In this document: in pieces, positions 15,481-32,237 of the stretch | Numbering within the stretch: position 1 is the first letter of the stretch | Layout of the letters: each line of letters starts with the position of its first letter | Assembly: GCF_037392515.1 (NCBI RefSeq) | Contig: NC_090288.1 | Location: forward strand, 56,033,673-56,097,672 | DNA length: 64,000 bases | Direction of reading: 5' to 3' | DNA from: Haliotis asinina | Taxonomy: Eukaryota > Mollusca > Gastropoda > Lepetellida > Haliotidae | Translations under genes and position numbers: made by a program | The notes under the pieces: generated by a model | Told to the model about the DNA's origin: nothing | What the model saw: the letters and a program-made list of their open reading frames with translations, nothing else | Databases searched by the model: none

Positions 15481-15636
15481 ATGGCTGCTATAAGAAAGAA
15501 GCTAGTAATAGTTGGGGATGGTGCCTGTGGTAAAACATGTCTTCTCATCGTCTTCAGTAAAGATCAGTTCCCTGAAGTTTATGTGCCAACTGTTTTTGAA
15601 AATTATGTAGCAGATATTGAAGTGGATGGAAAACAG
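15481..15636 (+). CDS. rho1: Rho GTPase, shared first coding exon (residues 1-52)
   Basis: Encodes 52 residues beginning [20 protein letters not shown], nearly identical to animal RhoA. It carries the P-loop GDGACGKT (12-19) and switch [12 protein letters not shown]. Within switch I, Tyr34, Thr37 and Asn41 are the residues known as targets of bacterial Rho-modifying toxins. The acceptor TTTTCAG lies 13 nt before the ATG and the donor CAG-GTAAG follows residue Q52 (phase 0). Either of two downstream terminal exons (25624 or 31815) can complete the protein in frame. This is the only copy of this exon in the window. Rho switches actin contractility and adhesion through kinases and formins. Confidence 0.95.
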
Positions 15637-17824
15637 GTAAGTTTGTGCTGACTGTTCATTTTGAGTAGGATAGCATTGTTAAATGAATTGTTACAATGCC
15701 TAAGTGTGCTTTTTACCTGAACAAGTACCCTAAATTACAGTAGTGATCTAGTGCAGAAACCTGCTTTTTCAACTGTGTTCTGTTGAAATTATATTTGCTG
15801 CACTGTTGACCTTGCACAGTTTCTACACACAAAAAGCATTGATTTCATTTATGATCACAGTCATTTTAATCTGATGATATCTGATCTTTATGTACATCAT
15901 CACTTTGGAAACTTTACTATTTGATTGATGATGTTTCAACAATGTGATTCATCATCACAATTAAATGCATATGATACATTTGCACTCATGTGATAATGAA
16001 TATCTGGTAATTTTGTTCATTTCATAGAAATATTAAACTTGCAGAATGATTTTGTAACAGCTAATGTTCCAAGGGGCGTAAAATGTATATGTGCGATATT
16101 CTCACTGCATCGAGGAGGGACTAGTGCTCCCTGTGTCTCCCTGCCTGCGTCGTGTGCTGCTACAGCAGGTTGTGTTGGTGTGAATTTCCCGCTGGGTGTC
16201 CGTCACTCAAGAAATAATGCAGTGATTACGCCAGTTATTGCTTAGCTGGTGCTTTCCTGTTATCAAATTCATGTAAAGCTTGGTTGATTTATTTTATTTT
16301 TTTTTTGGACAAAAGACATGTCTTGTTTGAGTACGCTGGCAGCTTTCATGTCTTATGATGAGGCAGCTTTGATTTTACTTCTGTCTGGTCCTAAGTTCTT
16401 GGGTGAGTTTACTTTCATGTTTGCATGTTTTTCTTTCTTTCTTCCTTATGTTTGCCTGCAAATTTGTTGCATTCAATTAGTGTTAAGAATGGACATTGAA
16501 AATAGTTTTATAATACTTGTATGGTTTGGCATTTGCTTCTTGTTTCCATTTTTATTTCCTAACCTTTGCATGACATTCAGGTTGTTCAATGCATGCATTT
16601 GATTTACATTTAAATAATGGCATACATCAAGTTTTCTAGGGGACTTGTCCTGATGTTAATTGACTCGGATTACATGCACACACCTCTCTGTGCTTTGTAT
16701 ACTTCTGCTTGCTTAGTGGCCTGTTTTGATCAAGGTGTGATTGGTAATTTTATATATGTAAGTTAGTACTGTACTTCATCATTATGTGAACTTGTTGACC
16801 TGTCTAGTAATACGCTTGCTTGGAGGAAATGTCTTTTGGAATAATTACATCATGGGGCACTTGTGCATTTTGACAAGTAGCACATTGATGCTTACATACT
16901 GTATCATCAGTGCTGAATAGATGTGTAACCGAATGTTGTGCATCAGAATGTTCAGGATATCGGTGTGTCGGAACAAATGTTTCGAGGTCTGACAACTTAA
17001 TTGATATTGTGGAAGTTGCATTTTGCCTTCTTGAATGATGACGTTAGTTCGTTGAGTAAATGAATATATGTACAAGGTACAAGAAGCTGTTATAAGGAGG
17101 ATGGCAATCGATTAGTTGACTGTTGTTTATATCACTGTTGTCCCATAATGAAAGAAGTACATAACTAGGAATAAATTACTTGGCAATATTGCTGCTAATG
17201 AACTCGTCGCATGTGTTATCCTTGTTTGGATAAGGAAGCCTTTGCAAGTGAAGATTAGATAATCTGATTGCAAATGAAAGAATATGAAGCAAAGTTTGCA
17301 TTGGGCACCAGTGTTCAATTCTAAATTTTGATTCTCTTTCTGAGAAAAGGTAATTTCCCACAGAAATCATGGTGTTTTTGATGTTAATTATGATCTGCTC
17401 CCCTGGCGGGCCTTAAATTAAATGTTGCCTTAAATTAAATTAAAAAGTTTGAATGCAACATTGTTTAAAAGCTGTTCACCAAAAAGTGTCGATCACTGTT
17501 TTCAGGTAGGTTAAAAGGGATAAAAGTCTTTTATTGCATCAACAGATAGCATAAATATAGTATAGATCAAACTAATGGTGTAAATGTGTGACATTGTGAT
17601 ATAATTTAATTCTGCACATTATTTTACAATGTGCGTTGTCTCCATTTGTGTTTGAAATCAGCTACTGTTCACACTTTGAAGAAAAGTGATGATAGAAGAA
17701 AATTGGTATTGGCCATCATCAAAGGCAGGAAAAGCAATCAGCTTGAGTGATGCTAGTAGTTTAAGGGCACTTGTGTTTCAAGACAATTTGTCACGTCACA
17801 AGTGAGTTATCAATATCTTACATT

Positions 17825-18055
17825 TTGTCAATGAGTTCAGGTTTACGCTCAGCAGTATTTTAGCTATATGGCTTTGGTGTGTAAATAATGACGTTTTAAC
17901 CAGACAATCCAGTAATCAATAGCATGAGCATCACATGTCAGATCGTGATACAGTGGCATGTGTCGACCAGGTCAGCCAGTCTGACCACCTGATCCTGTTA
18001 ATTCGCCTTACGCATGGGTTACTGGAGATCAATTCTAACCCAGATCTTCACAGGT
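17825..18055 (-). repeat. SINE family III, nearly full length
   Basis: Plus-strand reading: GTTTACGCTCAGCAGTATTT, then ACCAGACAATCCAGTAATCA, GTGTCGACCAGGTCAGCCAG, and CCCAGATCTTCACAGG. True orientation is minus. Confidence 0.8.
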
Positions 18056-29888: not shown

Positions 29889-31013
29889 TCAAAACCTTTC
29901 TGTGTCACACCGTCGCCATTGGGATGACACCATAGACGGCACTACATTGTCACAAATAATGGACAAAGTTGAAAGTAATAGACTGGAATGGGATGAGACA
30001 ATCTGAGACACAACTCTTTCGCAAGCTGCCGTGTAAGATGGGTTGACTCCGTTGTCAAATACAGATGAAGGTGCAACGTTTCCTGAACTTTCAAACTGTC
30101 CGCTTACTGTGCGTTGGAGCTGTAGACCAATAGTCTTGGGATCGTCCCTTGGTGTTACTGTTAGACCATGGGTAAGATCAAAAGTATCGGCACCTGAGCA
30201 TGATACAATGCCTGATGTGGACGAAACCTTACTGAAGTAGAAAAACAAAACAATAAAGAGAACATTAAAATGTTTGGTCAGTAATATGTAACAAACAGTA
30301 TATGTTTATATTTAAATTAGCTCTCCCCTTTTTGTTGGATGGTCAATGGGTATTAAGTGATGATAATTATCAGCTGCTTTCGTTACCTCAAGGAAACCTT
30401 TGTGCTTACTGACGCCACAATATACCCATAAATCATTGTTCCCCACTCAGATATTCTCTTCGTTTTTTCATCAAATCCATTTCCAGCCATGGCTGGAGCT
30501 TCTCTCTTGGCTGGTGCAGTTTTGACTGTTTGAAAACAATCATTACAATCCCTGATACGAATCAGTGAAATAGCATATAACATAATGGGGTGGGCTCCTG
30601 AAAAGAGGAATACATTCCTGTAACAAATTACAAACTTTCATGCAGTGTCGAAGTGAGTGTTTAAGTTATGTGAACAGTTTGATAAAAAGGGGGCGTGGAA
30701 TGCTTTGAAAGCATTTGTAAATATGTGTTATTTTAAAGCGTGTTGTATTACACGTTGTTAGTGAAGTACAAATTCTAGTACTTTGAGTTGACTCCCATCC
30801 GTGATTCAACAGTATGGGCACAGGTACCAGCGTTTGACAGGTAAATGATTATGATGTTTCAACAGGTAAAGGATGCATTTGTACAAGCTGAACAAATGAA
30901 TATGTCTTGGATGACCTTGCACAAATACCACCGTTACCAATCTTCCAAGTGCTTCTGAAAGCCTCTGAACCCAAGAGGAACTTAGACGTTCAACAAACCT
31001 TATCTCCACTTCT
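29889..31013 (-). CDS. Candidate antisense gene, three exons, product not recognised
   Basis: Minus-strand exons fit together in frame: about 31013-30916 (donor CAAG-GTCATC, weak), 30599-30385 (acceptor TTCCTCTTTTCAG, donor GAG-GTAACG) and 30240-29889 (acceptor TTTCTACTTCAG, then an open frame to a stop). The joined product runs from EIRFVERLSSSWVQRLSEAL through AKREAPAMAGNGFDEKTKRI to a Ser-rich C-terminus that includes GVNPSYTAACERVVSQIVSS. No start codon is seen, so the 5' end lies upstream or the first exon is wrong. It sits entirely between Rho terminal exons A and B, on the other strand. I know no family that matches. It could be a real small gene or chance splice sites round open frames. 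Confidence 0.4.
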
Positions 31014-31814
31014 TAGGAAGTGAGAGTTTCCTCAGACCGCGGCTCAAAAGAGAAACATGAACATATTGCTTCTAACGTGTCTGTATGATCAGAGCTCCCT
31101 CACAGATTTCGTGGATGCACAGAACGTCGGCTGTGATTCGTGGTAATGTAAGCGGCACAAAACAACTGTTAAGCATTCTATCAGTAGGGCAGCTTATCAT
31201 TATCATCAGAGTTACGCTACGGCTGTCGTTGGTGTTTGTCTATCGGAGTTCTACCACAGCTCCCCGATCGCTTTGTGAACGGACTCCAAATGTCTCTCAG
31301 TAGGACCAATACAATCACTTTTAATATGTTAAATTATTGTAAGTCACTGTGACTTGTAATATTAATGATATACATATAAGGCAACCAGTCTTTTTTTTAT
31401 ATTTAATAAAGTTATGTTACCCCAGTTCCCCATCAGTTTCCAGACCAAGTTTAACTGAGCGATCGTATTGCGCTCTGACTGTACTCTGAATATGTACCTG
31501 CGAGATAACACTAAAAATAAAACAAACAAAAAAAAAAACGAAAAAAAACACAACCAAAACAAGGCCCTTGATGGTATGCCAGGATCAACCAAGAGATCGT
31601 CACTCTCACACTTGCTCCTCCAAGCGTTGTCATCCCTTCGTCATAATTCAAACGTTGAGTATCTATCAACGAATAGCGTAGTAAATGACTGGCAGTGACT
31701 TTTACTCTAAGATATGTCCGTTTCACATGTTGAACGTTAGCCGTGATAATTGTGTTTAACGTTCGGGTTGTTTGTTCTTTGTAACATGTTTTTCTTTTTT
31801 CCCACTTCTCTCAG

Positions 31815-32237
31815 GTTGAGCTGGCGTTGTGGGATACAGCTGGACAGGAGGACTACGACAGACTAAGGCCTTTGTCTTACCCAGACACAGATGTCATCCT
31901 TATGTGTTTCTCCATCGACAGCCCCGACAGTTTAGAGAATATTCCAGAGAAGTGGACACCGGAAGTCCGCCATTTTTGCCCCAATGTCCCCATCATCCTT
32001 GTCGGGAACAAAAAAGATCTGCGCAACGACGAAAACACCAAACGAGAGCTGATGAAAATGAAGCAGGAACCAGTGAGACCAGAAGAAGGACGAGCCCAGG
32101 CCGAGAAGATCAGTGCTTACGCCTACCTCGAGTGCTCTGCCAAAACCAAGGAGGGAGTGAGGGAAGTATTTGAAACAGCCACAAGAGCTGCCTTGCAGGT
32201 TCGGAAGAAGAAGAAGGGCGGGTGTATATTGTTGTGA
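31815..32237 (+). CDS. rho1: Rho GTPase, alternative terminal exon B (residues 53-192)
   Basis: A second complete 140-residue terminal exon with acceptor CCCACTTCTCTCAG, in the same phase 0 as exon A, so it joins residue Q52 in frame. It differs from exon A at 14 of 140 residues. These are R104, E125, R129, M132, R140, P141, Q147, S152, Y154, E169 and four in the tail ([15 protein letters not shown]). DTAGQ, NKKD and SAK are intact. P141 and E169 agree with human RhoA, so exon B is the more RhoA-like form. DNA identity to exon A is near complete for ~152 nt, then falls sharply. No second copy of the first exon lies upstream, so alternative last-exon splicing is the simplest reading. Confidence 0.92.

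What the first reader, a model, noticed from the sequence alone, without database searches (positions are those of the whole stretch)
15481..32237. One Rho gene with two tandem, complete, alternative terminal exons
A single exon coding residues 1-52 is followed by two full terminal exons (25624-26046 and 31815-32237). Each codes residues 53-192, in the same phase, with its own acceptor, stop, CAAX box and poly(A) signal. Alternative last-exon choice would give two complete Rho proteins from one promoter. Vertebrates use separate RhoA, B and C genes instead. I know of no description of such a Rho locus, though I cannot search.
Basis: partly seen in the sequence, partly recalled or inferred. Interest (0 to 1): 0.85.

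Follow-up and report, generated by a model that had tools for sequence, protein, structure and literature searches.

The report
Rho gene with alternative last exons
In this snail-like genome, one gene for the cell-shape switch Rho carries two rival final exons, so it could make two different complete Rho proteins, and the same pair of exons turns up in many other molluscs and some worms.

Summary
One exon (15481-15636, residues 1-52) is followed by two intact, same-phase terminal exons, A (25624-26046, CTLL) and B (31815-32237, CILL). The window holds no second exon 1. A and B differ at 14 of 140 residues; flanks do not match, so this is not an assembly duplication. The first 152 nt are 98% identical, the other 271 nt 76%: an old duplication, its 5' part probably homogenised later.

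The interpretation, alternative last exons, is supported from elsewhere. Annotated RHO isoforms of two mussels join nearly the same N-terminal extension to A (Mytilus californianus X1) and to B (M. galloprovincialis X2). Predicted proteins of 17 other species (14 molluscs, nemertean, annelid, rotifer) carry A then B. Independent duplication per mollusc class is rejected by AU (p 0.01 and 0.03); per phylum it is rejected in one set, not in a thinned one.

A 2015 bivalve paper (passages and one section seen) reports the oyster pair as tandem duplicated genes. In nine paper searches I saw no account of the splicing choice. Known kind: KRAS4A/4B. New here: Rho, extent (73% of the protein), probable age. 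No RNA from this species was available.

The parts
15441..15467 (+). Polypyrimidine tract and acceptor before the first coding exon; implies an upstream untranslated exon
   Evidence: ttaatttttttttcttttcag; in-frame TAA at 15472-15474 before the ATG
15481..15636 (+). Shared coding exon 1, Rho residues 1-52, donor CAG|GTAAGT
25624..26046 (+). Terminal exon A, residues 53-192, tail [12 protein letters not shown], stop TAG
   Evidence: Pfam Ras E 3e-35
25624..25775 (+). 5' tract of exon A, 149 of 152 nt identical to exon B (probable gene conversion)
26005..26013 (+). In-frame donor-like site CAA|GTAAAG after residue 180 of exon A, the place where many annotated models leave A for B
   Evidence: use in this species not shown
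27196..27201 (+). Candidate poly(A) signal AATAAA for exon A (another at 27452)
   Evidence: motif only
31815..32237 (+). Terminal exon B, residues 53-192, tail [12 protein letters not shown], stop TGA
   Evidence: Pfam Ras E 1e-34; identical over 140 residues to the second copy in a Haliotis cracherodii model
31815..31966 (+). 5' tract of exon B, partner of 25624-25775
33543..33548 (+). Candidate poly(A) signal AATAAA for exon B (others at 34243, 34673, 35137)
   Evidence: motif only

Best explanation
This is a single Rho (RhoA-subfamily) gene whose last coding exon was duplicated long ago. The pre-mRNA starts upstream of exon 1. Splicing exon 1 to A and cleaving after A gives Rho-A. Skipping A and splicing exon 1 to B gives Rho-B. 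Both proteins share residues 1-103, with the P-loop, switch I and switch II, and differ in the second half of the G domain, the Rho insert region, the C-terminal basic stretch and the CAAX box. B is the conserved and probably housekeeping form; A is the faster-changing and probably regulated form. The duplication is at least as old as the gastropod-bivalve split and probably as old as a common ancestor of molluscs, nemerteans and annelids. Gene conversion keeps the 5' third of the two exons alike. Shown here: the anatomy, purifying selection, recurrence in other species, and annotated isoforms of both kinds in mussels. Inferred: use of both junctions in this species, the poly(A) sites, the housekeeping/regulated split and the conversion mechanism.
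For: Anatomy: one exon 1, two same-phase terminal exons, no exon 1 between them. Selection: codons 51-140 have dN 0.118 and dS 2.0 between A and B, codons 1-50 dN 0 and dS 0.10. Synonymous-codon differences are 3 of 47 in codons 1-50 and 37 of 75 after (Fisher p 3e-7; clustering reached in 29 of 100,000 shuffles). Other species: Mytilus galloprovincialis RHO isoform X2 (P0185) is N-extension + 1-52 + B and isoform X4 (P0186) 1-52 + B; M. californianus isoform X1 (P0236) is nearly the same N-extension (MRLFDSCFGKNEE..DFYASG) + 1-52 + A. Models of 17 other species carry A then B; M132+R140 occurs in 18 of 18 B exons and 1 of 18 A exons (Dreissena). The 19 B sequences form one clade in the bootstrapped ML tree, and one duplication per class is rejected by AU (p 0.0096, and 0.026 thinned). 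Label changes on the tree were 3, against 5 or more in 5,000 within-species label swaps. Expression: published CgRho-1, ubiquitous and high (PMC4669188), has mass and pI (21.66 kDa, 5.65) equal to those computed for the oyster 1-52+B form; its tandem partner CgRho-2 is barely expressed and rises in low salinity.
Against: No transcript data from this species. The mussel A and B isoforms come from two congeners, not one; I did not see both from one species. Tandem models alone do not prove a shared exon 1: in Trichomalopsis, Aphis and Onchocerca models the second copy has its own exon 1. The B clade has support of only 50, and a later search without two fragments gave a tree that was not cleanly split by A/B (3 label changes; its likelihood is 1.6 log units below the B-monophyly tree). 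Separate origin per phylum passes SH in the full set (0.059) and AU in the thinned set (0.16); the class-level alternative narrowly passes KH and SH there (0.052, 0.053). PyRho of the scallop (21.84 kDa, pI 6.62) does not match the Mizuhopecten B form that I computed (21.57, 5.99), and its A tail is unknown. That CgRho-2 is exon A is inferred.
Confidence: 0.88

Rival explanations
1. Two neighbouring genes: exon B belongs to a second Rho gene with its own promoter and first exon, and the shared exon 1 is an illusion.
For: Tandem complete Rho genes are common: models of Aphis, Trichomalopsis and Onchocerca, and three downstream copies in this genome. The oyster pair was published as two genes (PMC4669188).
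Against: No second residue 1-52 exon in the window or, in the genome search, anywhere between A and B. Mussel isoforms share 5' sequence between A and B forms.
Confidence: 0.05
2. One of the two exons is a dead or barely used relic: only one product matters in this species.
For: CgRho-2 of the oyster, probably exon A, is barely expressed (PMC4669188). A changes faster than B between species. No expression data here.
Against: Both frames, acceptors and CAAX boxes are intact; dN/dS between A and B is far below 1; A differs from the Haliotis cracherodii first copy at only 4 of 128 residues; an A isoform is annotated in M. californianus.
Confidence: 0.06
3. A third, fused product is the real output of exon A in many tissues: A is left at the internal donor after Q180 and spliced to B, giving a 320-residue protein.
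For: 11 of 11 NCBI-named fused models (10 species) and the Dimorphilus one use exactly LQ|V; hymenopteran models point to an intron at that place (P0127, P0168, P0174).
Against: The site in the window, CAA|GTAAAG, meets only 6 of 9 consensus positions. Seven of 19 fused models use other valine codons, as exon-chaining software would. The mussel isoforms seen are not fused. The second half of a fused protein would lack P-loop and switch I.
Confidence: 0.12

Closest known systems
KRAS4A/KRAS4B alternative last exons (vertebrates)
   Same: Small GTPase gene, shared 5' exons, two homologous terminal coding exons in tandem, each with its own membrane-targeting tail; old and retained (PMC9882654, passages seen)
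   Different: There exon 4 covers only the last 15 residues of the G domain plus the tail, and 4A is said to come from NRAS; here the exon covers 140 of 192 residues, from before switch II to the CAAX box
CDC42 alternative last exons (mammals)
   Same: Rho-family gene with two C-terminal variants from alternative 3' exons (named in PMC9882654, passage)
   Different: The variants differ in the membrane-targeting end; the G-domain body is not duplicated (recalled)
GNAO1 exon pairs 7.1-8.1 / 7.2-8.2
   Same: Tandem duplication of the terminal coding exons of a G protein, spliced in a mutually exclusive way (PMC5896119, passages seen)
   Different: Heterotrimeric G alpha, two exons per set, vertebrates
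Human RHOA splice isoforms
   Same: RHOA transcripts coding for proteins other than the 193-residue form, for example 187 and 90 residues (PMC9714508, passages seen)
   Different: The 90-residue form is described as changing frame after the shared N-terminal part; the passages seen mention no duplicated, complete terminal exon
Oyster CgRho-1/CgRho-2 'tandem duplicated genes' (PMC4669188)
   Same: Most likely the homologous exon pair in Crassostrea gigas: repeated in tandem, Ks 1.53, Ka/Ks 0.15
   Different: Interpreted as two genes, CgRho-2 as structurally incomplete; a shared exon 1 or splicing choice does not appear in the passages and the one section that I saw

Membership tests
Rho (RhoA subfamily) GTPase | G motifs [18 protein letters not shown] and SAK in the spliced products (motifs recalled) | tested here: met
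   translations of exon 1, A and B
Rho (RhoA subfamily) GTPase | closest to RhoA rather than Rac, with C-terminal basic stretch and CAAX | tested here: met
   exon B: RhoA chains 270 bits, Rac1 167 bits; tails [12 protein letters not shown] and [12 protein letters not shown]. Exon A was not run against solved structures; Pfam Ras E 3e-35
Alternative last exons from tandem exon duplication (KRAS4A/4B kind) | homologous terminal exons in the same phase behind one shared exon, each with a stop codon | tested here: met
Alternative last exons from tandem exon duplication (KRAS4A/4B kind) | both exons under purifying selection | tested here: met
   dN 0.118, dS 2.0 over codons 51-140 (dS near saturation); conservation across species
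Alternative last exons from tandem exon duplication (KRAS4A/4B kind) | transcripts joining the shared exon to each terminal exon | tested here: inconclusive
   annotated mussel isoforms of both kinds with nearly the same N-terminal extension, from two species; no reads from the window's species
Alternative last exons from tandem exon duplication (KRAS4A/4B kind) | own poly(A) site for the proximal exon | tested here: inconclusive
   AATAAA at 27196 and 27452 only
Tandem gene duplication (complete paralogues) | each copy has its own exon 1 | tested here: not met
   no exon 1 found between A and B; met instead by three downstream copies on C9

The most novel reading that the evidence does not exclude
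The locus is a three-way switch kept across spiralians for half a billion years: one promoter yields a housekeeping Rho (B), a regulated Rho (A) and, through the in-frame donor after Q180 of exon A, a 320-residue tandem Rho with a second switch II-to-CAAX half.
Probability: 0.12. Interest if true: 0.85.

Novelty: new variant of a known kind. Interest (0 to 1): 0.62.

Why it matters
Rho was first cloned from the sea hare Aplysia (recalled), and vertebrates have RhoA, B and C as separate genes. If molluscs and related worms also diversify Rho by choosing between two last exons that make up 73% of the protein, Rho function in these animals has been studied with its products merged. Where the 5' tracts are as alike as here, reads from them hardly tell A from B; annotators fuse the two or call one incomplete; and knock-downs aimed at shared sequence would hit both. 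It would be an old case of alternative splicing doing what gene duplication does elsewhere for a central signalling protein. It also offers a natural test of what the Rho insert and the C-terminal half add, because the first 103 residues are identical in the two products.

Tried and rejected
Assembly duplication: rejected (69 of 423 nt differ, flanks do not match). Exon B as a member of the downstream paralogue cluster: rejected; those copies are 71-72% identical in DNA over the aligned part and have their own exon 1. The TAG reported in the copy at C9:56164554 is the splice acceptor TAG|GTTGAG, not a stop in the coding sequence. Fused proteins as proof of a shared exon 1: not accepted, since Aphis, Onchocerca and Trichomalopsis models hold a second copy with its own exon 1. 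Left out of the A/B counts: pairs from other animals (Adelges, Orbicella, Acropora, Stylophora, Oculina, fish, Trichosurus, Nasonia, Asterias), and of the spiralian fusions P0014 (second C. virginica model), P0026 (second Dreissena locus) and P0036 (truncated M. edulis); this leaves 17 species plus the window. Asterias, Nasonia (first copy only) and Orbicella stayed in the tree as outgroups. Mytilus_ed2 and ErpetoB were dropped before the AU tests. The thinned set keeps 12 pairs and six outgroups; there the free tree and the B-monophyly tree have practically the same likelihood, so the AU value for the free tree carries no meaning. Telling from mass and pI which exon the scallop genes use: unresolved. 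Promoter scans and structure prediction were not run.

Papers: nine searches, the last counts being 0 to 399 papers with up to 20 listed each. PMC4669188: passages and section 9 seen. PMC7600811, PMC9714508, PMC9882654 and PMC5896119: passages only. Others: search listings only. None of the listings or passages seen describes alternative terminal exons in an invertebrate Rho gene; subscription papers and supplements were not searched.
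Full report
What is there. The window (G000:C9:56033673-56097672 of a 1.14 Gb, 159-contig assembly) carries a coding exon for Rho residues 1-52 at 15481-15636 and then two complete terminal exons for residues 53-192: A at 25624-26046 and B at 31815-32237. By these coordinates the intron to A is 9,987 bp, that to B 16,178 bp, and A and B are 5.8 kb apart. tblastn finds one copy of the first exon and two of the second in the window, and nothing else better than E 0.33. The whole-genome protein search gives 86 matches at E <= 0.001. On contig C9 downstream of B they include three two-exon paralogues with their own exon 1, about 0.4-1.2 kb before exon 2; they are 71-72% identical in DNA to A or B over the aligned part. 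A DNA search with exon B lists five places: B (100%), A (85%), two of the downstream copies and a 67-base match on C4.

A against B. They differ at 14 residues: 104, 125, 129, 132, 140, 141, 147, 152, 154, 169, 182, 185, 188 and 190. Residues 53-103 are identical. In DNA the first 152 nt show 3 differences, all synonymous, and the remaining 271 nt show 66. Synonymous-codon differences are 3 of 47 in codons 1-50 and 37 of 75 in codons 51-140 (Fisher p 3e-7); dS is 0.10 against 2.0 and dN 0 against 0.118 (NG86, near saturation). Outside the exon the match stops within 4 nt of the acceptor, and the 1.5 kb flanks give nothing better than E 0.045. The simplest account is an old duplication with later gene conversion of the 5' part, running up to where homology ends. 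This is inference; conservation of exonic splicing signals is a weaker alternative.

Relatives. Predicted RHO proteins of many spiralians are about 320 residues long: 52 + a first copy of 53-180 + a second copy of 53-192. Each of the three protein searches listed its best 120 rows, out of 2,645, 7,825 and 7,990 proteins at E <= 0.001; I printed 38, 17 and 11 sequences (a few twice). In Haliotis cracherodii the second copy equals window exon B over all 140 residues and the first copy differs from A at 4 of 128, so the window is probably a vetigastropod near the abalones (inference). In 17 such species (14 molluscs, one nemertean, one annelid, one rotifer) plus the window, the second copy has M132 and R140 in 18 of 18 cases and the first copy in 1 of 18, Dreissena. 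The second copy of Aplysia is, by recall, the classical Aplysia Rho.

Age. The bootstrapped ML tree of residues 103-180 puts the 19 B sequences (18 plus Biomphalaria) together without any A, with weak support (50). Forcing separate duplications in each group costs 70 log units (AU p 0.0096), in each phylum 44 (AU 0.027, SH 0.059). In that call a free search without two fragments reached a tree 1.6 log units below the B-monophyly tree, and on it the A/B labels change 3 times, not once; 5,000 within-species label swaps give 5 or more changes (mean 12.6). The swaps ignore that close relatives are counted several times. In a thinned set of 12 pairs the class-level alternative is rejected by AU (0.026) but narrowly not by KH and SH (0.052, 0.053), and the phylum-level one is not rejected (AU 0.16). 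So a duplication before the gastropod-bivalve split is well supported, and one before the mollusc-nemertean-annelid split is likely but not secured.

Is exon 1 shared elsewhere? Fused models cannot prove it: models of an aphid, a wasp and a nematode hold a second copy with its own exon 1. The best evidence is from mussels. M. galloprovincialis RHO isoforms X2 and X4 end in B; X2 begins with MRLFDSCFGKNEEKDFYASG before residue 1. M. californianus RHO isoform X1 begins with MRLFDSCFGKNEETKKDFYASG and ends in A, with tail VKKSKRRKCKIF; residues 1-102 of the two are identical. Nearly the same 5' end is thus joined to A in one mussel and to B in its congener, under isoform names. The numbering X1-X4 would fit two N-termini times two C-termini, but I did not see X1 and X3 of M. 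galloprovincialis. Octopus isoform X3 (P0078) has an A-like end.

Published traces. PMC4669188 (passages and section 9 seen) reports in C. gigas two Rho genes repeated in tandem: CgRho-1 (192 aa, 21.66 kDa, pI 5.65, highly and ubiquitously expressed) and CgRho-2 (182 aa, incomplete G2 region, barely expressed, raised by low salinity), Ks 1.53, Ka/Ks 0.15. The values that I compute for the oyster 1-52 + B protein are 21.66 and 5.65, so CgRho-1 is most likely the B form and CgRho-2 exon A with a wrong start. B forms of several other molluscs give similar values, so this is support, not proof; and the scallop PyRho values do not match the B form computed from Mizuhopecten. [quoted passage not shown] Human RHOA does have other protein-coding splice isoforms (PMC9714508, passages).

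The fused form. Of 19 fused or tandem spiralian models examined, the 11 with an NCBI RHO name and the Dimorphilus one all leave exon A exactly after Q180 (LQ|V); the other seven do so elsewhere. Two bee proteins (P0168, P0174) and a Nasonia model point to an intron at that place, and 18 of 24 single-copy proteins with an unusual end, none with an organism name, read on from RAALQ into unrelated residues. So the site may be an old intron position. In the window it reads CAA|GTAAAG, 6 of 9 consensus positions. I take most fused models for artefacts of exon chaining but cannot exclude a real third product.

How it most likely works. Transcription runs through the whole locus. If the A acceptor is used and the transcript is cut after A, Rho-A results; if A is skipped, Rho-B results. 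The choice would depend on recognition of the A acceptor and on cleavage after A. The A acceptor is slightly poorer in pyrimidines than that of B (0.77 against 0.83 over 30 nt), a weak hint at most. The products share nucleotide binding and both switches, so they should meet the same core effectors, and differ in the insert region, the C-terminal helix, the basic stretch (KGKC against KGGC) and CAAX (CTLL against CILL; both end in L, which by established rules favours geranylgeranylation, recalled). Differences in GDI or membrane binding are a guess.

Verdict. It belongs to a known kind (tandem duplicated alternative last exons in a GTPase gene) and is a new variant by gene, extent and probable age.

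Noticed in passing
G000:C9:56163938-56191149 (L010-L012), 98-125 kb downstream of exon B: Three two-exon Rho-like paralogues in tandem with the same phase-0 intron after residue 52 (second exons 87, 72 and 75% identical to Rho-A protein); a more distant exon lies at 56148752 and another pair on contig C6.
   Followed up: partly
window 62507-63484 (-) and about 63870-63929 (-): Integrase-core (rve, Pfam E 1.6e-10) frame of 325 aa beside a YTDTDSL motif typical of family-B DNA polymerase (recalled): looks like one end of a Maverick/Polinton-type element running off the window.
   Followed up: no
window 44166-46862 (-): Uninterrupted frame of 898 residues with several hydrophobic stretches and no Pfam match at E 0.001.
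   Followed up: no
window 58030-61150 (-): Pieces that look like exons of a tRNA 2-thiouridine transferase (TRMU/MnmA-like; Pfam tRNA_Me_trans E 3e-19 for 59176-59601).
   Followed up: no
window 4461-12428 (-): Ankyrin-repeat frame (Pfam Ank_2 E 9e-34 for 11373-12428) and a SOCS-box match below its cut-off (4461-5072): perhaps an ASB-like gene upstream of the Rho gene on the other strand.
   Followed up: no
window 683-1152, 36236-36944, 46972-48717: Three tandem-repeat arrays seen in the self-comparison.
   Followed up: no
P0078, P0124, P0125, P0126, P0185, P0236: Rho proteins of octopus, chiton, nemertean and bivalves carry an alternative N-terminal extension of 17-22 residues before Met1; the window has an in-frame stop just upstream of the ATG.
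   Followed up: partly
P0168, P0174, P0127: Bee and wasp Rho1 models point to an intron after Q180, so that the membrane-targeting tail would be a separate exon there.
   Followed up: partly
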